From positions 1 through 33,341 of the forward strand of contig CAIMWE010000085.1 of the NCBI GenBank assembly GCA_903845115.1: a stretch of 33,341 nt of DNA, in the 5' to 3' direction. Positions within the stretch are counted from its first letter, which is position 1. Each line of letters starts with the position of its first letter. The notes under the pieces are model-generated. The model did not search any database. It was not told where the DNA came from and worked only from the letters and a program-made list of their open reading frames with translations. Positions 14,213 through 21,731 of the stretch are shown one piece after another. This stretch comes from an uncultured Acidobacteriota bacterium (GTDB lineage Bacteria; Acidobacteriota; Thermoanaerobaculia; UBA5066). Both the position numbers and the translations under genes were made by a program.

Positions 14213-16018
14213 ATGCGCCGACTGGCCCTCGCCCTGGTCCTGGCCCTGATCGCTTTCCCCGTCGCGTCCGCCCCACCGACCCCGGCCGCCACCCCCGCCG
14301 AGGCGAGGGCGTTCGTCGAGGGGGCCGAGGCGAAGCTCCTGGCCCTCTCGGTCGAGGCGGAACGGGCTACCTGGGTCCAGGAGAACTTCATCACCGACGA
14401 CACCGAGACCATCGCCGCCCTGGCCGCCGAGCGGCGCGCCGCGGCCGCGGCCGGGATGGCCAAGCAGGCGACCCGCTTCGACGGCCTCGCCCTTCCGGCC
14501 GACGTCGCGAGAAAACTGGAGCTCCTGAAGCTCTCCCTCGTTCTCGCCGCCCCGGCCAACCCGGCCGAGAGCGCCGAGCTGGCCCGTCTGGCGGCCGGCA
14601 TGAACGGGACCTACGGAAAGGGGAAGTACTGCCCTCCGGGCAAGGAGTGCCTCGACCTCACGGCGATCGATAAGCGGATGGCCGAGAGCCGGGATCCGAA
14701 GGAGCTGCTGGAGCTCTGGAAGGGCTGGCACGCCATCGCCCCGCCGATGAAGAACGACTTCGCCCGGGCGGTCGAGCTGTCGAACAAGGGGGCCAGGGAG
14801 CTCGGCTTCGCCGACACCGGCGCCATGTGGCGGAGCAAGTACGACATGCCGCCGGAGGCCTTCGCCAAGGAGGTCGACCGCCTCTTCCAGCAGGTGAGGC
14901 CGCTGTACCTCTCGCTCCACGCCTACGTCCGGTTCCAGCTACGGAAGCAGTACGGGGACGCGGTCGTCCCGGCCACGGGACCGATCCCGGCGCACCTGCT
15001 GGGCAACATGTGGGCCCAGACCTGGGGGAACATCTACCCGCTCGTCGCGCCGAAGGAGGGCGACCCCGGCTACGACGTGACCGTCATCCTCAAGGAGAAG
15101 AAGGTCGACGAGAAGGGGATGGTCCGCTACGGCGAGGGCTTCTTCACGTCGCTCGGCTTCGCCCCGCTCCCGGCCACCTTCTGGGAGCGGTCGCTCTTCA
15201 CGAAGCCGCGGGACCGGGAGGTCGTCTGCCACGCCAGCGCGACGGACGTCGATTACGTCGACGACCTCCGGATCAAGATGTGCATCGCCATCACCGCGGA
15301 GGAGTTCGCGGTGGTCCACCACGAGCTGGGGCACAACTTCTACCAGCGCGCCTACAACAAGCAGCCTGGCCTCTTCCGCGAGAGCGCCAACGACGGATTC
15401 CACGAGGCGATCGGCGACACGATCGCCCTCTCCATCACGCCGGGCTACCTGAAGAAGCTCGGCTTCATCGCCGCCGAGCCGCCCGCGTCGAAGGACCTCG
15501 GCCTCCTGATGCAGATGGCGCTGGATAAGGTCGCTTTCCTCCCGTTCGGCCTGCTGATCGACCGGTGGCGCTGGAAGGTCTACTCGGGCGAGGTCCCGCC
15601 CGGGAAGTACAACCAGGCGTGGTGGGACCTCCGGCTCGAGTACCAGGGGGTCGCGGCCCCGGTCGCCCGCACCGAGGCCGACTTCGACGCCGGCGCGAAG
15701 TACCACGTCCCGGCGAGCGTCCCCTACACGCGCTACTTCCTGGCCGACATCCTCCAGTTCCAGTTCCACCGGGACCTGGCGAAGACCGCTGGCTGCACGG
15801 ACGCCGTGAACCGCTGCTCGGTCTACGGCAACAAGGCGGCCGGGAAGAAGCTGAACGACATGCTGGAGATGGGGATGTCGAAGCCCTGGCCCGAGGCCCT
15901 CGAGAAGATCAGCGGCACGAAGACCATGGACGCGACCGCCGTCCTCGACTACTTCGCCCCGCTGCAGAAGTGGCTCGACGAGCAGATCCGGAAGGAGAAG
16001 ATCCCGGTCGGCTGGTAG
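14213..16018 (+). CDS. Secreted M2-family metallopeptidase (angiotensin-converting-enzyme-like)
   Basis: 601 aa, with an ATG 7 nt after GGAGGAGG (14198-14205). Residues 1-20 form a signal peptide (ALVLALIAFPVASA). The zinc site is H370-E371-L-G-H374 in 'VVHHELGHNFYQ', and 'FRESANDGFHEAIGD' supplies the third ligand E398, 24 residues after the second histidine, exactly the spacing of ACE. Length matches bacterial single-domain M2 enzymes, which remove dipeptides from peptide C-termini in the periplasm or outside the cell. Cysteines at 'CPPGKEC' and near the end (CTDAVNRC) could form disulfides. The gene is divergent from the ABC operon and convergent with nothing; MerR follows after 90 bp in the same direction but has its own promoter. 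A peptide-scavenging role is inferred. Confidence 0.93.
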   Translation: MRRLALALVLALIAFPVASAPPTPAATPAEARAFVEGAEAKLLALSVEAERATWVQENFITDDTETIAALAAERRAAAAAGMAKQATRFDGLALPADVARKLELLKLSLVLAAPANPAESAELARLAAGMNGTYGKGKYCPPGKECLDLTAIDKRMAESRDPKELLELWKGWHAIAPPMKNDFARAVELSNKGARELGFADTGAMWRSKYDMPPEAFAKEVDRLFQQVRPLYLSLHAYVRFQLRKQYGDAVVPATGPIPAHLLGNMWAQTWGNIYPLVAPKEGDPGYDVTVILKEKKVDEKGMVRYGEGFFTSLGFAPLPATFWERSLFTKPRDREVVCHASATDVDYVDDLRIKMCIAITAEEFAVVHHELGHNFYQRAYNKQPGLFRESANDGFHEAIGDTIALSITPGYLKKLGFIAAEPPASKDLGLLMQMALDKVAFLPFGLLIDRWRWKVYSGEVPPGKYNQAWWDLRLEYQGVAAPVARTEADFDAGAKYHVPASVPYTRYFLADILQFQFHRDLAKTAGCTDAVNRCSVYGNKAAGKKLNDMLEMGMSKPWPEALEKISGTKTMDATAVLDYFAPLQKWLDEQIRKEKIPVGW

Positions 16019-16066
16019 GCCGGCCCTGGTCTTCGCGGGAAGGGGCGGCCCGAGGCCAGAAAAATA

Positions 16067-16080
16067 TTGTCACTTGACAA
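16067..16080 (+). promoter_or_regulatory. Operator palindrome 1 (over the -35)
   Basis: TTGTCA-CT-TGACAA is a perfect 6+6 inverted repeat. It includes the -35 hexamer. It shares the TGACA half-site with the second palindrome 4 nt downstream. Confidence 0.6.
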
Positions 16081-16083
16081 ACG

Positions 16084-16098
16084 TGACAGTAACTGTCA
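16084..16098 (+). promoter_or_regulatory. Operator palindrome 2 (spacer and -10)
   Basis: TGACAGTAACTGTCA is a perfect 7+7 inverted repeat around one A. It fills most of the -35/-10 spacer, the place where MerR-family proteins usually bind. Confidence 0.65.
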
Positions 16099-16108
16099 TA
16101 TTTATGGA

Positions 16109-16552
16109 GTGAGCGACAGACCTTCTCCCTCCCCCTGGGGCATCGCGGAACTGGCCGAGCTGGGAGGGGTGAGCCGGCGGACGGTCCGGTACTACGTCCA
16201 GGAAGGTCTCCTCCCCGCCCCGCACGGCGTCGGGCGCGGAAACCACTACGGCCGGGAGCACCTCGACCGCCTCCTGGCGGTGAAGGCGATGCAGGAGAAG
16301 GGGTGGTCCCTGGAGAGGATCCGGGGCGAATCCGTCCCCCCCGCGGAGGGAAACGTGACAGTCACACTGGTTCCCCGGGAGGCCTGGGTGAGGCTGACCG
16401 TGGCACCGGGGATCGAAATCCACCTCGGGAGCGGGCGGCGGCTTCCGCCTCCCGGACGGCTGGCCGAGCTGGCGGCGACGTGCCGCGAGCTCTTCGGAGA
16501 CGGGCCGGAAAGCGCGGAAGCCGGCAGCCCGTCCAAGGACGGAAAGGAGTGA
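16109..16552 (+). CDS. MerR-family transcriptional regulator
   Basis: 147 aa from GTG 16109. A TTG at 16067 is in frame but lies inside the operator and promoter, so it is rejected. Residues 10-75 are a MerR winged helix-turn-helix: 'WGIAELAELGGVSRRTVRYYVQEGLLP', then 'GRGNHYGREHLDRLLAVKAMQEKGWSLERIR'. The usual long dimerisation helix is short. The rest (about 82-130, VTVTLVPREAW...LTVAPGIEIHLGSG) looks like a small beta-rich effector part without the cysteine ligands of metal-sensing MerR proteins. The stop lies 2 nt before the VIT/vWA start with GGAAAGGAG between coding ends, so the two are cotranscribed. It probably controls this cassette through the palindromes in its promoter. Confidence 0.88.
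   Translation: MSDRPSPSPWGIAELAELGGVSRRTVRYYVQEGLLPAPHGVGRGNHYGREHLDRLLAVKAMQEKGWSLERIRGESVPPAEGNVTVTLVPREAWVRLTVAPGIEIHLGSGRRLPPPGRLAELAATCRELFGDGPESAEAGSPSKDGKE
16351..16365 (+). promoter_or_regulatory. Possible third operator inside the MerR gene
   Basis: AAACGTGACAGTCAC contains the perfect palindrome GTGAC-A-GTCAC. Its first 12 bases (AAACGTGACAGT) are identical to 16079-16090 in the promoter. It could be a downstream operator for looping or road-block control. It also encodes NVTVT, so chance is possible. Confidence 0.4.
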
Positions 16553-16554
16553 CC

Positions 16555-19035
16555 ATGCCCATCGGAATGGCCTTGCCCGGGACGGAAGGAAAGGTCCGGG
16601 CCGGTCTCTGGGTCAGGGAGGCAGCGGACCGGCCGGCAGGGAACCGTGCGGAGCGGGAAGAGGTCCCGCTGGAGGGGGTCCAGGTGGAGGCCCACCTCAG
16701 GGACTTCACGGCAAAGGTGACGATCTCCCAGCGGTTCGTCAACCGCGGGCCGAAGCCGATCGAGGCGGTCTACGTCTTCCCGCTGGACGAGGGGGCCGCG
16801 GTCTCGGCCTTCGAGGCGGTGGTCGACGGCGTCCGCGTGACGGGGAAGTCGATGGAGCGCGAGAAGGCGTTCGAGCTGTACGACGACGCGATGGCCGCCG
16901 GCCACGGCGCCTACCTCCTCGACGAGGAGCGCCCGGACCTCTTCACGCTGAGCGTCGGGAACCTCCCGCCCGGGAAGGAGGCGCTGATCCGGATCACCAC
17001 GGTGGCCGAGCTTCCCCTCGAGGGGGAGGCCATCCGCTTCACGCTCCCGACGACGGTCTCGCCCCGGTACGCCCCGGAGCAGGACCGGACGGGCGTCGGC
17101 CGCCCGCCGGCCGAGGCCCTGAACCCTCCGACCGCCTTTCGCGTCCCGTACGGCCTCGAGCTGGCCGTGACGATGGAGATGCCGTCGGCGATCCGGGGCG
17201 TCGAGTCGCCCACTCACCCTCTGTCGGTCGAGATCGACGGGACGAGGGCCACGGTGCGCCCCGGCGAACGCCTCACCGCGATGGACCGCGACTTCGTCCT
17301 GGTGGTGAAGCTGGAGGCGCCCCACGCGCCGCGGGCCGTCGTCGAGCGGGATCCGGCCGGCCGGCTCGCGGCGCTCCTCTCGTTCGTGCCGAAGCTCGAC
17401 GAGAAGGCCCGGGGCCGCCGGCCCTGCGAGGCGATCTTCCTCGTCGACCGGTCCGGGTCGATGGGAGGGACGTCGATCGCCGAAGCGAGGAACGCCCTCC
17501 AGCTCTGCCTCCGGAGCCTCCCAGCCGGGTCGCGCTTCAACGTCGTCGGCTTCGGGTCGACCTACCAGAGCCTGTTTCCCGAGAGCCGCCTCCTGGACGA
17601 CGCCAGCCTCCAGGAGGCCAGCCGCCACGTCGCCGCGATGGACGCCGACCTCGGGGGGACCGAGATCCTCCCCGCCCTCGAGGCGGTCCTGGGGGCTCCG
17701 GCCCTCGCGGAGCTGCCGCGGCAGCTCTTCGTCCTGACCGACGGCGAGGTGACGAACACCGACGAGGTGATCGCGGCCGCCGCCGCCCACTCCGGCCGGG
17801 CCCGCGTCTTCGCCTTCGGCATCGGCGCCGGGTCGAGCGCCCACCTCGTGAGGGGGCTCGCCCGCGCGGGGCGCGGCGAGGCCGAATTCATCGCCCCCGG
17901 AGAGCGGATCGAGGGAAAGGTGATGCGCCAGCTCGGCAAGGCGCTCGCCCCGGCCCTGACCGACGTCAAGGTCGACTGGGGAGGGCTGGAGGCGACCCAG
18001 GCGCCGCACGTCGTCCCTCCCGTCTTCGACTCCGGGCGCATCCTCGTCTGGGCCCTCCTGGCCGGAGGCCGTGCCGCCACGGTGACGCTCTCCGCGAAGG
18101 GCCCGGACGGCCCGCTCTCCTTCCCGATCGCTCTCGACCCGGCCACGGCCGCGGCGGGCGACCAGATCGCCACGCTGGCCGCCCGGGCCCTCATCCGCGA
18201 CCTGGAGGAGGGGGCCAGCCCGCTCTGCGGCAAGGGGGGCTCGCGCCAGGCGCGGGGACAGGCCGGCCGCGACGTGAGGGTAAAGGCCGAGATCGTCCGC
18301 CTCGGCACGGCGTTCGGCCTCGCCTCGCGCGAGACCTCGTTCGTCGCGGTGGAGCACCGGACCACGCCGCTCGGCGAGGAGGCCGTCCTCCGAAAGATCC
18401 CGGTCGCCCTGACGCGCGGTTGGGGAGGGACAGAAGCGCTCTTCGAGGGCCCCGGCCTGATCTGCAGGAGCGCCCCTGCTTCTCCGGCGCCGCCCGCCTC
18501 GATGGGCGCCAGTTTCGGACCTTCCCCCCTGCTCGACGTCGCCGGAAGCGCACCCGCCGCAAGGTCCAGCTTCCTCGGGCGGCTCATGCATCTCGGCGGC
18601 CAGGGCGCCGCGGGACGGCATTCTGCCAGCGTGCGGGAAAAGACCGCGAAGTTCCGCTCCAGCTCCCCGGTCCAGGGGCCTCTGCCGCAGGCCGAGCTGG
18701 AACCCGCCCCCGGCGAATCCGTCCGCCCCGTCGACCGGCTCGTTGCCCTCCAGGGAGCCGACGGCAGCTGGGACCTCACCGCGGAGTTCGCGAAGGCGAT
18801 CGGGGCCCGGCTCCCCGCACTCGAGAAGCGACTCGCCGGCCTGACCGGAGATCCTTCCGTCGCCCGCCGCGCCCTCGCCACGGCGCTCGCGCTCGCGTGG
18901 CTCGAACGCCACGCCGCGGCCGAGAGGGACGAGTGGAGCCTCCTCGCCGAGAAGGCGCTCGCGTGGCTCGCCTCGTCGGGCGCCCGGGGAGCGGACGGCC
19001 GCTCGCTGGACGCGATCGCCGGAGAGACCCTCTGA
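16555..19035 (+). CDS. VIT and vWA domain protein (inter-alpha-trypsin/VWA5A/PARP4-like), cytoplasmic
   Basis: 826 aa from ATG 16555 with GGAG 5 nt upstream; an in-frame ATG much further up lies in the MerR gene and is not used. No signal peptide or membrane helix is seen. Residues about 35-165 are a VIT domain (VEAHLRDFTAKVTISQRFVN, 'PIEAVYVFPLDEGAAVSAFEA', 'EREKAFELYDDAMAAGHGAYLLD'). Residues about 290-460 are a vWA domain with a complete metal-ion-dependent adhesion site: D298-x-S300-x-S302, T369 and D396. A low-complexity linker (about 640-700) leads to a C-terminal domain with 'LVALQGADGSWDL' and 'ALATALALAWLERHAA', similar to the tail of eukaryotic VWA5A/PARP4 proteins. VIT-vWA proteins are scaffold or adhesion modules; a cytoplasmic, MerR-controlled one has no clear known job. 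Confidence 0.9.
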   Translation: MPIGMALPGTEGKVRAGLWVREAADRPAGNRAEREEVPLEGVQVEAHLRDFTAKVTISQRFVNRGPKPIEAVYVFPLDEGAAVSAFEAVVDGVRVTGKSMEREKAFELYDDAMAAGHGAYLLDEERPDLFTLSVGNLPPGKEALIRITTVAELPLEGEAIRFTLPTTVSPRYAPEQDRTGVGRPPAEALNPPTAFRVPYGLELAVTMEMPSAIRGVESPTHPLSVEIDGTRATVRPGERLTAMDRDFVLVVKLEAPHAPRAVVERDPAGRLAALLSFVPKLDEKARGRRPCEAIFLVDRSGSMGGTSIAEARNALQLCLRSLPAGSRFNVVGFGSTYQSLFPESRLLDDASLQEASRHVAAMDADLGGTEILPALEAVLGAPALAELPRQLFVLTDGEVTNTDEVIAAAAAHSGRARVFAFGIGAGSSAHLVRGLARAGRGEAEFIAPGERIEGKVMRQLGKALAPALTDVKVDWGGLEATQAPHVVPPVFDSGRILVWALLAGGRAATVTLSAKGPDGPLSFPIALDPATAAAGDQIATLAARALIRDLEEGASPLCGKGGSRQARGQAGRDVRVKAEIVRLGTAFGLASRETSFVAVEHRTTPLGEEAVLRKIPVALTRGWGGTEALFEGPGLICRSAPASPAPPASMGASFGPSPLLDVAGSAPAARSSFLGRLMHLGGQGAAGRHSASVREKTAKFRSSSPVQGPLPQAELEPAPGESVRPVDRLVALQGADGSWDLTAEFAKAIGARLPALEKRLAGLTGDPSVARRALATALALAWLERHAAAERDEWSLLAEKALAWLASSGARGADGRSLDAIAGETL

Positions 19036-20090
19036 CCCTCCCCGAAGGGCCCGGCCCGGCGGCGAGGGAGGGGGGCGCGACGCTCCTCTCCCTCACGCCG
19101 CTCGTCGCTTTCGCCGAGCGTCACCAGGCGATCTTCTGGACCCTTCACAGCGTCTGGGCGCTCGGCTGGGGCATCGCCCTGATGGCGTTCGGTTCCAAGC
19201 GGACGTGGCTCCTTCGATACGGCCTGGCGTCGGTCGGCCTCGTCTGGGCCACCAGCCTCCTCCTCCCCGCGCTCCTTCGCCGCTCGTGGATCTCCGAAAA
19301 GCGGAAGGACCCCGCCCGGCGGGTCGTCCTCTGGGTCCAGAAGTGGCAGCTCCAGGGTCTCGCCTTCTTCGTCCTGCCTCTCTATCACCGGAGCGCGACT
19401 TACCCCTCCCGGAACACCCTCTTCATGATCCTCCTCGCCCTCGCCGCGCTCGCCGCCACGATCGACGTGATCTACGACGAGTACCTCACCCGCAAGGCTT
19501 GGCTCCTCGGGGTCTTCCTCGCCTTCACCGCCTTCGCCTGCGCGAACCTGACCCTCCCGATGATCTGGCGAGTCGGCGACCGCTGGACCCTGGCGGTCAG
19601 CGCCCTCCTGGCCACGAGCGTCTTCGTCTCGTTCTGGGCGCGCCACGTGAGCGAGAAGGGCCGGAGCCTCTGGCAGGTCGCGGCCGTCGGCCTCCTCTTC
19701 CTCCTGGTCGTCACCGTCTGGCTGCCGGTCGTCCCCCCCGCGCCGCTCCGCCTCGTCTCGGCGGCCTTTGGAACGTCGCTGTCGGAGGACCGCCTCGACG
19801 TCTCCACGGCCCTTCCCGCCCTCTCCCCCGCGAGCGAGGGACTCCTTCACCTCGTCGCCGCCATCCAGGCCCCCGCCGGCCTCGCCGAGGGGGTCCGGCA
19901 CGTCTGGTCGCTGGACGGGAGGAAGGTCTCCGAGAGCCGCCTGATCGGGATGACTGGCGGACGGGCCCAGGGGTTCCGGTCCCGGTCGTCCGCTCTGCTC
20001 CGCGGCCTCGCCCGGGGCCAGCGGGTCCGCGTCGACGTCGAGACCGGCTGGGGACAGCTGATCGGGCGCGCCGAGATCGAGGTCCGCTGA
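19032..20090 (+). CDS. Polytopic membrane protein with C-terminal DUF2914-like domain (DUF5924-like N-part)
   Basis: About 352 aa. The likely start is a CTG at 19032 that overlaps the stop of the VIT/vWA gene (CTGA), with GGAGAG 6 nt upstream. The first ATG in frame (19182) would cut the first membrane helix, and GTGs further up (about 18930-18963) lie inside the previous gene. About seven hydrophobic helices span residues 35-250 ('IFWTLHSVWALGWGIALMAFG' to 'VAAVGLLFLLVVTVWLPVV'). Residues about 270-352 match DUF2914: 'AIQAPAGLAEGVRHVWSLDGRKV', 'GGRAQGFRSRSSAL', 'VDVETGWGQLIGRAEIEV'. Pairing of such a domain with the DUF5924 membrane region is known in other bacteria; the function is unknown. 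The overlap ties it to the VIT/vWA gene. Confidence 0.8.
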   Translation: MTLPEGPGPAAREGGATLLSLTPLVAFAERHQAIFWTLHSVWALGWGIALMAFGSKRTWLLRYGLASVGLVWATSLLLPALLRRSWISEKRKDPARRVVLWVQKWQLQGLAFFVLPLYHRSATYPSRNTLFMILLALAALAATIDVIYDEYLTRKAWLLGVFLAFTAFACANLTLPMIWRVGDRWTLAVSALLATSVFVSFWARHVSEKGRSLWQVAAVGLLFLLVVTVWLPVVPPAPLRLVSAAFGTSLSEDRLDVSTALPALSPASEGLLHLVAAIQAPAGLAEGVRHVWSLDGRKVSESRLIGMTGGRAQGFRSRSSALLRGLARGQRVRVDVETGWGQLIGRAEIEVR

Positions 20091-20137
20091 GGAGACGGGG
20101 GAGTCCTTCCCTGCTACCCCGGCGGGCGCCCCGGGGG

Positions 20138-20143
20138 TATGCT
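20138..20143 (+). promoter_or_regulatory. Possible -10 element before the 40-aa peptide gene
   Basis: TATGCT lies about 54 nt before the ATG at 20197. No clear -35 is visible. The ATG inside it opens a longer frame that runs into the cyclase gene but is judged spurious. Confidence 0.3.
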
Positions 20144-20196
20144 TTTGGGGATTCGCCCGCGCGCGGTCCAGCGCGGCCGGCAGCCACGGAGGACTC

Positions 20197-20319
20197 ATGC
20201 CGCACACGATCTTCCACCCCAGTTACGTCCCCCACTCCCCCGCCCTGCGAACTCTCCTGCTCCTCGGCCTCCTGCTCGCCCTGGCGGCCCTCCTGGCCGT
20301 GCCCGCCGGCGGCGTCTAG
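20197..20319 (+). CDS. Small membrane protein, 40 aa
   Basis: The ATG has a strong ribosome site (ACGGAGGA, 4 nt gap) and the stop is TAG. Residues 1-16 (MPHTIFHPSYVPHSPA) are His/Pro/Tyr-rich and polar. Residues 18-36 (RTLLLLGLLLALAALLAVP) form one transmembrane helix. Third codon positions are almost all G or C, as in the neighbours. It could be a single-pass regulator of a membrane complex. I do not recognise the family. It sits between the DUF2914 gene and the 62-aa gene, with gaps of 106 and 60 bp. Confidence 0.65.
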   Translation: MPHTIFHPSYVPHSPALRTLLLLGLLLALAALLAVPAGGV

Positions 20320-20366
20320 CGAGGTCCCTCGGGTCCGAACGCGGCTCGCGGTGGAGCGGTCCGCGG

Positions 20367-20372
20367 TACGCT
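20367..20372 (+). promoter_or_regulatory. -10-like element for a leaderless GTG start
   Basis: TACGCT ends 7 nt before the GTG at 20380. No Shine-Dalgarno lies between them. No clear -35 is visible. Confidence 0.4.
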
Positions 20373-20379
20373 TCCGCCC

Positions 20380-20568
20380 GTGAAGAGGCAAAAGCGCACC
20401 TTCTCGCCCGCCCGCGGACTCCCGGCGGCGGCGCTCGTCGTGGCGGCCGTCGCCTCTGCCGCCCCGTTCGACCTCCTCGCTGCCGGGGCCCTGGCCGTCG
20501 ACGACGGCAGGAAGCCGACCGGCGCGAAGCCCGGCGAGGCGCTCCGGGGTCCCGGCACCCGGCCCTGA
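20380..20568 (+). CDS. Small hypothetical exported protein, 62 aa
   Basis: It begins at GTG 20380 without a ribosome site but 7 nt after a -10-like hexamer, so it is probably leaderless. A basic N-terminus (MKRQKRTFSPAR) and a hydrophobic Ala/Val stretch (residues 14-38) look like a signal peptide or anchor, followed by a short polar tail. Codon wobble is G/C, as in real genes here. The stop lies 5 nt before the ATG of the diguanylate cyclase, which has no ribosome site of its own, so reading through this ORF may deliver ribosomes to it. No family recognised. Confidence 0.5.
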   Translation: MKRQKRTFSPARGLPAAALVVAAVASAAPFDLLAAGALAVDDGRKPTGAKPGEALRGPGTRP

Positions 20569-20573
20569 CAGAC

Positions 20574-21731
20574 ATGAACGCCATCGAATGCCTCTCCCCC
20601 GACCGCCTCGCCCCGATCCTCGAGCGGAAGCGTAGCGGGGACGCCTCGGCAGCCCTCCCCCGCTTCCCGCTCGACGCGCTGCTCATCTCGATCCTCGAGA
20701 AGGCGAACGAGTTCGTCCCGTCGGCCGCAGGGTCGATCCTGCTCGACGACCCCCTGCTCAAGAGCGACGGCCAGACGTCCCGCAAGGAGCTGGTCTTCGT
20801 CTGCTGCTTCGGCCCGGCCGCCCGCTCCTTCGTCGGGGAGCGGGTCGCGATCGAGACCGGGATCGTCGGAGCGGTCTACCGGACCGGACATTCGCGTGTC
20901 ACGAACGACGCCTACGGCAGCGCCGAGTTCGCCGGCGAGTTCGACCGCCGTTCCGGCTACTCGACCCGGTCGGTCCTCTGCGTCCCGATCCGCATCGGGG
21001 GGTCGATCTGCGGCGTCATCGAGCTGATGAACCGGCAGGACGGGCGGGGCTACCGCGAGGAGGAGAAGGAGCTGCTCGAGATCTTCGCCGGCTACATCTC
21101 GTCCACGATCCAGAACGCGCTCGACGCCAAGCGGATCGCGATGATGGTGCGGCGCGACGACCTGACCGGGCTGTCGAACGACCGGGACCTCCACGAGCGG
21201 CTCCCCGCCGAAGTGGACCGCGCGATCCGGGACGGGCGGCCGCTGTCGGTCGTCTTCCTCGACCTCGACCACTTCAAGGAGGTCAACGACCGGCACGGGC
21301 ACCTGGCCGGGACCATGACCCTCGGCGAGTTCGGCCGGCTCCTTCAGGACGTGGTCCCCTCCGAGGAGGCCCTCCTCGCCAGGTACGGGGGCGACGAGTT
21401 CGTCGCGGTCCTCCCGGGCGCCGGCCGGGAAGCCGCCCTCGCGACCGCCGAGTCGATCCGGTCGGCCACCGAATCGCACGTCTTCCTGAGCTCCCCCTGG
21501 GGAGACCACGAGCCCCCTCTTCACCTCGGGGGGATCGTCACGGCCAGCGTCGGCGTGTCGACCCTGGAGGCCCGGAGGGACCGTCCCCCCGGGGAGTCCT
21601 CCCTCCGTGTCGGCATGCGCCTCATGCAGACCGCGGACCAGGCCATGTACCTCTCGAAGGGCCGCGGCAAGAACGCGGTGACGGCCCTCCCGTTCGACAC
21701 GGGGGAGTCCGGCGGGAACCGGCGGACGTGA
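20574..21731 (+). CDS. GAF-GGDEF diguanylate cyclase
   Basis: 385 aa, soluble. Residues about 36-183 form a GAF sensor domain (SAAGSILLDD, 'YSTRSVLCVPIRIGGSICGVIELMNR'). Residues 194-380 form a GGDEF domain: 'RRDDLTGLSNDRDL', metal-binding D230 in FLDLDHFKEVND, and the active-site loop R-Y-G272-G-D-E-F276. The catalytic motif is intact, so it should make cyclic di-GMP. The RxxD inhibitory site five residues before GGDEF is absent (SEEA instead), so product inhibition by the usual route is not expected. The normal 'GHxxGD' segment reads GHLAGT. The family start cannot be checked, but ATG 20574 is the first after the upstream small gene. The stop overlaps the GTG of the next small gene (GTGA). 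Confidence 0.9.
   Translation: MNAIECLSPDRLAPILERKRSGDASAALPRFPLDALLISILEKANEFVPSAAGSILLDDPLLKSDGQTSRKELVFVCCFGPAARSFVGERVAIETGIVGAVYRTGHSRVTNDAYGSAEFAGEFDRRSGYSTRSVLCVPIRIGGSICGVIELMNRQDGRGYREEEKELLEIFAGYISSTIQNALDAKRIAMMVRRDDLTGLSNDRDLHERLPAEVDRAIRDGRPLSVVFLDLDHFKEVNDRHGHLAGTMTLGEFGRLLQDVVPSEEALLARYGGDEFVAVLPGAGREAALATAESIRSATESHVFLSSPWGDHEPPLHLGGIVTASVGVSTLEARRDRPPGESSLRVGMRLMQTADQAMYLSKGRGKNAVTALPFDTGESGGNRRT

What the first reader, a model, noticed from the sequence alone, without database searches (positions are those of the whole stretch)
16056..20090. MerR - VIT/vWA - DUF5924/DUF2914 cassette as a candidate undescribed regulated system
Seen: a MerR gene with operator palindromes, 2 bp to a cytoplasmic VIT/vWA gene with intact MIDAS residues, then a stop/start overlap with a polytopic protein ending in a DUF2914-like domain. 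VIT/vWA proteins with a VWA5A/PARP4-like tail are best known from eukaryotes. A bacterial, non-secreted, MerR-controlled version paired with a membrane partner suggests a scaffold docking on a membrane protein in response to a small-molecule or stress signal. The function is inference.
Basis: partly seen in the sequence, partly recalled or inferred. Interest (0 to 1): 0.72.

Follow-up and report, generated by a model that had tools for sequence, protein, structure and literature searches.

The report
Conserved MerR–VIT/vWA two-gene regulatory module
A small DNA-binding regulator and a cytoplasmic relative of the human PARP4/VWA5A proteins travel together as a two-gene unit with a similar self-control switch in very different bacteria, but the membrane gene next to them here is a local passenger and what the unit does is still unknown.

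Summary
MerR (16109-16552) and a cytoplasmic VIT/vWA protein (16555-19035) form a conserved TWO-gene unit. Of 80 VIT/vWA loci kept from a scan of 84,980 species genomes, MerR lies directly upstream in 24 of the 25 most similar and in 1 of the other 55; carriers bear nine phylum labels. DUF5924 is found beside none of 90 loci, by a search that found 12 of 12 controls, and lies on other contigs in three relatives with the pair. The promoter is conserved too: TTGACA-17-TATATT, a TGACAGTnACTGTCA-like operator in its spacer, and the MerR start usually 6-9 nt after the -10, so probably a leaderless mRNA. A reciprocal search also finds such MerRs beside vWA-only proteins, and one myxobacterium has MerR fused in frame to VIT/vWA. 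Human PARP4's core is closest to the mainly acidobacterial part of this group; the C-terminal domain resembles that of a T. brucei vWA protein. Best reading: an autoregulated MerR switch whose partner, perhaps direct ligand, is the vWA protein. Regulation is inferred; binding and cellular role are untested.

The parts
16067..16080 (.). Weaker inverted repeat TTGTCA-CT-TGACAA overlapping the -35 box, possible second operator
   Evidence: Read from sequence; many homologues have GACACTTGACA here
16074..16079 (+). -35 box TTGACA
   Evidence: Only sigma-70-like site found in 15900-20600; conserved in homologues
16084..16098 (.). MerR operator palindrome TGACAGTAACTGTCA in the promoter spacer
   Evidence: one site in the assembly
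16097..16102 (+). -10 box CATATT, 17 nt from the -35; GTG start 6 nt further on, so the mRNA is probably leaderless
16109..16552 (+). MerR-family regulator, 147 aa, GTG start
   Evidence: PF13411 3.9e-16; family alignments
16385..16489 (+). MerR C-terminal mini-domain, W94-x-R ... P-G-x-E104-x-H106 then a helix-like stretch (P0001 numbering); shared by MerRs that sit beside vWA genes
   Evidence: helix by eye, no structure predicted
16555..19035 (+). Cytoplasmic VIT/vWA protein, 826 aa
16669..16998 (+). VIT domain (residues 39-148)
   Evidence: PF08487 2.5e-32
17434..17889 (+). vWA domain (residues 294-445) with intact MIDAS D298-x-S300-x-S302 / T369 / D396
   Evidence: PF13768 3.7e-29
18712..19032 (+). 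Helical C-terminal domain (about residues 720-826) with the LQxADGSW motif, likely counterpart of the VWA5A/Vwa1 CTD
19032..20090 (+). DUF5924 membrane protein with a sub-threshold DUF2914-like tail; CTG start possible, true start unsure; local neighbour, not part of the conserved unit
   Evidence: PF19346 5.7e-14, PF11141 20.0 bits against cut-off 23.6; absence beside relatives
20117..20136 (+). Terminator-like stem-loop after DUF5924 (1 found, 1.4 expected by chance)

Best explanation
A self-contained two-gene regulatory module. MerR binds the palindrome that fills the spacer of its own promoter. As the -35/-10 spacing looks normal (16-18 bp), not the 19-20 bp recalled for classical MerR activators, the default action is most likely repression by covering the promoter. 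The leaderless mRNA makes MerR and, through tight coupling (2 nt gap here, overlapping stop and start in several relatives), the VIT/vWA protein. The VIT/vWA protein is a cytosolic metal-site (MIDAS) binding platform of the VWA5A/PARP4 type. I propose that it feeds back on MerR: the MerR C-terminal mini-domain (W-x-R...PG-x-E-x-H) is what the vWA protein recognises, and free or client-bound vWA protein sets the level of its own operon. Shown by sequence comparison: the conserved pair, the conserved promoter/operator, the single full site in this assembly, the vWA-only variants, one natural in-frame fusion, and kinship with eukaryotic intracellular VIT/vWA proteins. Inferred: repression, leaderless start, MerR-vWA contact, the client and the signal. 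DUF5924 is a local, non-conserved neighbour.
For: Pair: MerR directly upstream in 24 of the 25 VIT/vWA loci that score 484 bits or more and in 1 of the other 55 (under 400 bits) of 80. Reciprocal: of 29 MerR hits at E<=1e-12 in 199 genomes of the phylum, 21 have a VIT/vWA or vWA gene directly downstream and 1 (G037) directly upstream; 7 have neither. Myxococcota: of the 30 loci fetched out of 49 hits, 29 adjacent, 1 fused. No third family recurs in 29 loci. Promoter: 16 of 27 upstream regions score >=15 (0.0007 of dinucleotide shuffles do) and 19 of 27 >=14 (0.0085); in 17 of those 19 the start lies 6-9 nt after the -10. 25 of 30 Myxococcota loci fit TTGACA-17-TAnnnT and then all have the start 7 nt on. 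One full site in this assembly. vWA partner without VIT in 7 loci with the same kind of MerR. A DxSxS-type MIDAS motif in 28/28, 15/15 and 29/29 partners; the MerR Glu in 23/26, 8/14 and 29/29. Stop/start overlaps. Eukaryotic kinship. Precedent for a leaderless MerR-type repressor: CvkR, PMC9938897 (passages read).
Against: No transcript start, binding or interaction was measured. The alignment and MerR profile used to find and score loci came from pair-bearing loci, three of which are among the 80 (L054, L057, L070), so the 25/55 split is partly one of kinship. Three clear MerR relatives of one genus (G052, G039, G011) keep the C-terminal motif with no vWA gene in the stretch fetched, so that motif need not mean vWA contact. 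The proposed MIDAS-ligand Glu is present in only 8 of 14 extended-set members. My patterns for the other MIDAS residues missed at least one in 7 of 15 extended partners; the vWA gene in L151 looks broken. 8 of 27 loci lack a promoter score >=14, and L067 gave none. The fusion is 1 genome of 30. L063 has no MerR. In G156 the VIT/vWA gene has an internal stop. Many MerR-linked rows are no closer to PARP4 than unlinked ones.
Confidence: 0.5

Rival explanations
1. MerR is an ordinary sensor of a small molecule or stress that turns on a VIT/vWA scaffold acting elsewhere (assembly, chaperoning, signalling); MerR and vWA proteins never touch.
For: MerR family membership and a size like that of metal-sensing MerRs (recalled); autoregulated operons are common (general knowledge); linkers before the C-terminal motif vary in length.
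Against: No metal or redox MerR model is reached and the protein has one cysteine; its C-terminal motif is shared by MerRs whose partners have only the vWA domain in common; one natural fusion.
Confidence: 0.33
2. A three-gene system in which VIT/vWA docks on the DUF5924 membrane protein under MerR control.
For: Same strand, possible CTG start overlapping the VIT stop, no terminator-like site between them.
Against: DUF5924 found beside none of 90 VIT/vWA loci, with 12 of 12 controls found by the same search; no third family recurs; in G176, G043 and G068 both are present but on different contigs.
Confidence: 0.06
3. A conflict/defence module: a MerR repressor holding back a vWA effector.
For: Patchy spread and varied neighbourhoods; a gene with DUF4062, a NACHT-type ATPase and WD40 repeats, the TEP1-like layout, lies downstream in L057 (DUF4062 NADases in PMC13174449, abstract and passages); a Sacsin/NOV_C protein in L073 and a sub-threshold HSP90-like ATPase in L072 lie downstream.
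Against: VIT/vWA has no PADLOC hit and MerR only mad1, an HTH model; no PADLOC family matches more than 2 of 82 neighbours; presence in many myxobacterial genomes suggests a stable role there.
Confidence: 0.1
4. A bacterial vault-like part: VIT/vWA with its MINT-like tail binds a major-vault-protein cage.
For: PARP4 is the top solved-structure relative by sequence and the tail matches the PARP4 C-terminal region weakly; one genome has both the pair and an MVP domain.
Against: MVP_shoulder was found in 1 of 28 genomes with the pair or a clade member, not in the window's own.
Confidence: 0.02

Closest known systems
Eukaryotic intracellular VIT/vWFA proteins: VWA5A/BCSC-1, Dictyostelium Vwa1, PARP4 (PMC10539598: abstract, section 22 and passages read)
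   Same: VIT + vWA order, cytoplasmic, C-terminal domain; PARP4 core 33% identical to L031 over 586 aa. Boland et al. already place bacterial sequences in an intracellular clade (B1) that runs into the VWA5A group.
   Different: The bacterial genes here carry an upstream MerR and a conserved operator; 'MerR' occurs 0 times in that paper. No PARP-type Pfam domain in the window protein. VWA5A and Vwa1 sequences were not compared here.
CvkR, MerR-type repressor of type V-K CAST (PMC9938897, passages read)
   Same: Short MerR, palindromic operator, leaderless mRNA; said to lack a recognisable effector-binding site (its abstract also speaks of potential effector-binding domains)
   Different: Represses cas12k and tnsB, different operator (AnnACATnATGTnnT); no vWA partner in the passages seen
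TIGR03788 marine proteobacterial sortase target protein
   Same: VIT + vWA core; the window protein scores 299.5 bits
   Different: Below its 551.65-bit cut-off
vWA-containing NTP-dependent conflict systems (PMC7159879, search listing only; MoxR-vWA systems recalled)
   Same: vWA protein as a partner component
   Different: No third recurring family, hence no recurring MoxR ATPase, beside the pair; 'MerR' counted 0 times in that paper in the listing
ITIH heavy chains (6fpy, 9c4f)
   Same: Same VIT/vWA fold, best Foldseek match of the full model
   Different: Secreted (general knowledge); far weaker by profile (4.9e-28 for ITIH4 against 4.9e-104 for PARP4)

Membership tests
MerR family regulator | N-terminal MerR winged-HTH | tested here: met
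   PF13411 59.3 bits against cut-off 21.6
MerR family regulator | Palindromic operator inside the target promoter spacer | tested here: met
   16084-16098; similar in relatives; binding itself not tested
Classical MerR activators (MerR, CueR, SoxR) | 19-20 bp spacer between -35 and -10 (recalled) | tested here: inconclusive
   Best sites scoring >=15 have 16-18 bp in 16 of 16 (allowed 16-19 only); no start site mapped
Classical metal/redox MerR subfamilies | Score above NCBIfam cut-off | tested here: not met
   Best TIGR02051 38.6 bits against 150.85; all 21 listed models below cut-off
VIT/vWA superfamily | VIT followed by vWA with MIDAS | tested here: met
   PF08487 and PF13768 above cut-off; MIDAS invariant in 6 sequences
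VWA5A/PARP4-type intracellular VIT/vWA | C-terminal helical domain homologous to the eukaryotic CTD | tested here: met
   Model pLDDT 96; the one Foldseek hit with high probability is T. brucei 9e5c_4s (E 0.043, prob 1.00, TMq 0.74; next best prob 0.35). Profile matches 9e5c_4s at 0.0012 and PARP4 at 0.044, but lanosterol synthase scores better (6.4e-6). VWA5A itself was not available to compare
VWA5A/PARP4-type intracellular VIT/vWA | Groups with these rather than with ITIH in a tree | tested here: inconclusive
   PARP4 on the MerR-linked side, ITIH4 on the other, but very long branches; AU test does not reject PARP4 outside the MerR rows (p 0.131)
TIGR03788 sortase target | Score above 551.65 | tested here: not met
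   299.5
Vault particle component | MVP encoded in the genome | tested here: not met
   PF11978 not found in G000; found in 1 of 28 genomes
Three-gene MerR-VIT/vWA-DUF5924 system | DUF5924 linked to the pair elsewhere | tested here: not met
   0 of 90 loci in the DNA held, control 12 of 12; separate contigs in G176, G043, G068
DUF2914 | Score above Pfam cut-off | tested here: not met
   20.0 against 23.6
Known anti-phage systems | PADLOC match of the pair | tested here: inconclusive
   None for VIT/vWA or DUF5924; mad1 HTH model for MerR; PADLOC-DB of 2023

The most novel reading that the evidence does not exclude
MerR-(VIT)vWA is an undescribed class of signalling switch, spread over at least nine phylum labels with its own promoter, in which a MIDAS/vWA protein is the direct protein ligand of a MerR regulator; the cytoplasmic VIT/vWA lineage of eukaryotes (VWA5A, PARP4) shares its origin with the effector of this bacterial switch.
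Probability: 0.28. Interest if true: 0.82.

Novelty: new variant of a known kind. Interest (0 to 1): 0.6.

Why it matters
To my knowledge the VIT domain and the VWA5A-type tail have no settled biochemical role (PMC10539598 calls the functions of these domains generally unknown). A bacterial operon that keeps the full protein with one dedicated regulator, one operator and a natural fusion gives a small, testable system for asking what a cytoplasmic VIT/vWA protein binds. If the vWA protein feeds back on MerR, it would be a new input to a large regulator family; a promoter, operator and leaderless start kept across phyla would also be a clear case of a switch inherited or transferred as a whole.

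Tried and rejected
Three-gene cassette: rejected. Vault hypothesis: MVP_shoulder in 1 of 28 genomes. Sortase-target family: below cut-off. Defence: no PADLOC hit for VIT/vWA; 82 neighbour proteins gave no PADLOC family in more than 2 members. Plasmids: 19 of 72,556 records hold distant matches, none over 80% of the query, 28-34% identity, so no plasmid copy of this type was found. PARP4 by structure: not among the 13 Foldseek matches of the tail, nor in the 50 rows shown for the full model. A second look by VIA-align listed complement C4 and cyclases at Z 5.9 or less, which its own note treats as possibly only a common arrangement; 9e5c_4s is not in its rows. Full-length model: mean pLDDT 70, tail linker under 50. 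The first promoter scan with one rigid pattern, built on the window's own site, fitted few relatives because the -35 shifts by a base; replaced. AU test: PARP4 inside the MerR rows is not significantly better than outside. Papers: 10 searches. 'VIT domain'+'von Willebrand'+'MerR'+'bacteria' gave one unrelated paper, 'DUF5924' none, 'Myxococcus xanthus'+'VIT domain' none; the wider searches returned listings that I did not read further. That is the whole basis for saying the pair seems undescribed; most subscription journals and bioRxiv are not held.


Full report
What is in the window. Three genes on one strand follow an M2 peptidase gene: MerR 16109-16552, VIT/vWA 16555-19035 and a DUF5924 membrane protein to 20090. 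The only sigma-70-like site found in 15900-20600 is TTGACA 16074-16079, 17 nt, CATATT 16097-16102 (10 of 12 matches, TG before the -10; shuffles mean 0.0). Inside its spacer lies TGACAGTAACTGTCA (16084-16098). The MerR GTG begins 6 nt after the -10. With up to 3 mismatches the -35/operator pattern matches once in the 5.85 Mb assembly (96% complete), the only other match being the same palindrome read on the opposite strand. The one terminator-like site is after DUF5924 (20117; 1.4 expected by chance), so the three genes may share a transcript here.

The conserved unit is two genes. A scan of 84,980 species genomes with an alignment of six VIT/vWA proteins found 186 relatives and kept the best 80. 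MerR lies directly upstream on the same strand in 24 of the 25 loci that score 484 bits or more (L063 has none) and in 1 (L100, broken) of the other 55, all under 400 bits. The profiles were built from pair-bearing loci, three of which (L054, L057, L070) are among the 80, so the split follows kinship to that group. The organism labels of this group are Acidobacteriota, Myxococcota, Armatimonadota, Spirochaetota, Chloroflexota, Eisenbacteria, Nitrospirota, Bacteroidota and Pseudomonadota; they are mostly metagenome bins, and one is labelled Klebsiella, which I doubt. All-against-all comparison of the genes called in 29 such loci finds only two families in three or more loci: VIT/vWA (27) and MerR (22; the gene caller missed some). 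The window's DUF5924 protein finds no relative in any of 90 loci. As a control, the same kind of search finds 12 of 12 known DUF5924 loci, and a profile of 12 DUF5924 sequences again finds none in the 90; 68 of 90 loci, and 22 of 31 of the pair-bearing group, hold 1.5 kb or more downstream. DUF5924 is in 12 of 199 genomes of the phylum; in G176 (same family, with the closest DUF5924 relative, 430 bits), G043 and G068, which carry the pair, it lies on another contig.

Reciprocal test. A profile of 27 MerR sequences, run on 199 genomes of the phylum (at most 20 candidates scored per genome), gave 29 hits at E<=1e-12 in 28 genomes. From coordinates and fetched stretches, 21 have a VIT/vWA or vWA gene directly downstream and one (G037) directly upstream. 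Seven do not: G052, G039 and G011 (one genus, which keep the C-terminal motif) and the weak hits G008, G046, G012 and G082 (for G082 by coordinates only). In seven loci (L142, L143, L144, L146, L148, L151, L152) the partner matches only the vWA part of the profile; Pfam, run on three of them (L143, L146, L152), shows VWA models only; the gene in L151 looks broken. In Myxococcota, 47 of 117 genomes have a MerR hit at E<=1e-14. Of the 30 loci fetched out of 49 hits, 29 have the VIT/vWA gene adjacent; the other, L177, was flagged as not adjacent because both lie in one open frame. There the MerR C-terminus runs in frame into the VIT/vWA start, where three relatives have an ATGA overlap, and the frame stays open for 1045 codons from its first GTG. 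It is one genome and a sequencing error cannot be excluded. The other 19 hits were not examined.

The promoter travels too. Of 27 upstream regions scored, 16 reach a combined -35/half-operator/-10 score of 15 or more (0.0007 of dinucleotide shuffles do) and 19 reach 14 (0.0085). In 17 of those 19 the first in-frame start codon is 6-9 nt after the -10; the exceptions are L066 (0, or 6 by the next ATG) and L071 (13). L034 and L070 are near copies. In Myxococcota 25 of 30 loci fit TTGACA-17-TAnnnT (the 17 was fixed in the pattern) and in all 25 the start follows 7 nt on; the operator letters there differ from TGACAGTnACTGTCA. In the extended set a perfect TTGACA lies at such a place in 11 of 17 loci L136-L152, that is 11 of the 14 that have a vWA neighbour. 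Transcripts starting at the start codon are implied, not shown. CvkR is a MerR-type repressor with a leaderless mRNA and a palindromic operator (PMC9938897, passages), so the mode has a precedent.

What the VIT/vWA protein is. By sequence its best solved relative is human PARP4, residues 606-1184 (phmmer 1.5e-64 over 616-1182; profile 4.9e-104 against 4.9e-28 for ITIH4). Searched the other way, the PARP4 core ranks 15 rows of this bacterial group first (13 distinct, mostly Acidobacteriota, one of them L063 without MerR; best L031, 315 bits, 33% over 586 aa); the sixteenth, L067, ties with the best row outside, L102 (202 bits). The remaining MerR-linked rows score no better than unlinked ones (for example L034 169, L076 172). 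In a quick tree the MerR-linked rows lie on one side of a branch (SH-aLRT 97) together with PARP4 and L037 (itself next to a MerR), and ITIH4 lies with the unlinked rows; PARP4 sits with seven acidobacterial-type rows (99). PARP4 and ITIH4 have very long branches, and holding the MerR rows together without PARP4 is not rejected (p-AU 0.131). The C-terminal domain (model pLDDT 96) has one confident Foldseek match, the tail of a T. brucei vWA protein (E 0.043, probability 1.00, TMq 0.74). By profile it matches that protein (0.0012) and PARP4 1573-1643 (0.044), while lanosterol synthase and terpene cyclases score better, so the sequence case for PARP4's tail alone is weak. Boland et al. 2023 (PMC10539598: abstract, section 22 and passages) already describe the CTD shared by VWA5A and Vwa1 and an intracellular clade that includes bacteria; 'MerR' does not occur there. 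So a bacterial intracellular relative is known; the regulatory unit is what I could not find in print (10 searches listed under Tried and rejected).

How it may work. The MerR proteins share, after a linker of variable length, a mini-domain W-x-R...PG-x-E-[LI]-H followed by a helix-like stretch; the Glu is kept in 23 of 26, 8 of 14 and 29 of 29 members of three sets. A DxSxS-type MIDAS motif is kept in 28 of 28, 15 of 15 and 29 of 29 partners; my loose patterns for the other MIDAS residues missed at least one in 7 of 15 of the middle set. The MerR has one cysteine and reaches no metal or redox model. Because the vWA domain is the common denominator of the partners, and because a fusion exists, I favour contact between the MerR mini-domain and the vWA protein, perhaps with the Glu as MIDAS ligand; that last step is speculation by analogy with other MIDAS proteins (recalled). 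The normal promoter spacing favours repression. The client of the VIT/vWA platform is unknown. The single site in the assembly suggests that the module regulates itself and little else.

Verdict.

Noticed in passing
L057/L032:9267-13571: Directly downstream of the VIT/vWA gene in one Acidobacteria genome lies a 1434-aa protein with DUF4062, a NACHT-type ATPase and WD40 repeats (TEP1-like layout): relatives of two minor vault proteins side by side in a bacterium. Single case.
   Followed up: partly
L135 (G199:C25:95055-95372): A major-vault-protein shoulder domain (PF11978, 5.8e-19) in a 946-aa open frame of the Thermoanaerobaculia genome that also carries the MerR-VIT/vWA pair.
   Followed up: no
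L186:4330-7467 (-): Natural in-frame MerR-VIT/vWA fusion in a 10.35 Mb contig of an unnamed myxobacterial genome.
   Followed up: yes
L137, L138, L139: MerR relatives with the same C-terminal W...GLE[LI]H motif but no vWA gene in the stretch fetched (one genus); the true partner is unknown.
   Followed up: partly
L037:7296-10498: MerR relative directly downstream of a divergent VIT/vWA gene, reversed gene order; the C-terminal part of that VIT/vWA protein looks sigma-70-like by eye.
   Followed up: no
L071: The contig is labelled Klebsiella pneumoniae but is a metagenome bin whose VIT/vWA protein groups with Proteobacteria and Myxococcota bins; the label is probably wrong.
   Followed up: no
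window:22859-25216: Protein with repeated 'WTWVSGSN'-like, Kelch-like units and two copies of a C-terminal module (by eye, ORF), not searched.
   Followed up: no
window:122-7663: Open frame of about 2513 aa that begins with repeat-like surface-protein sequence (by eye), not searched.
   Followed up: no
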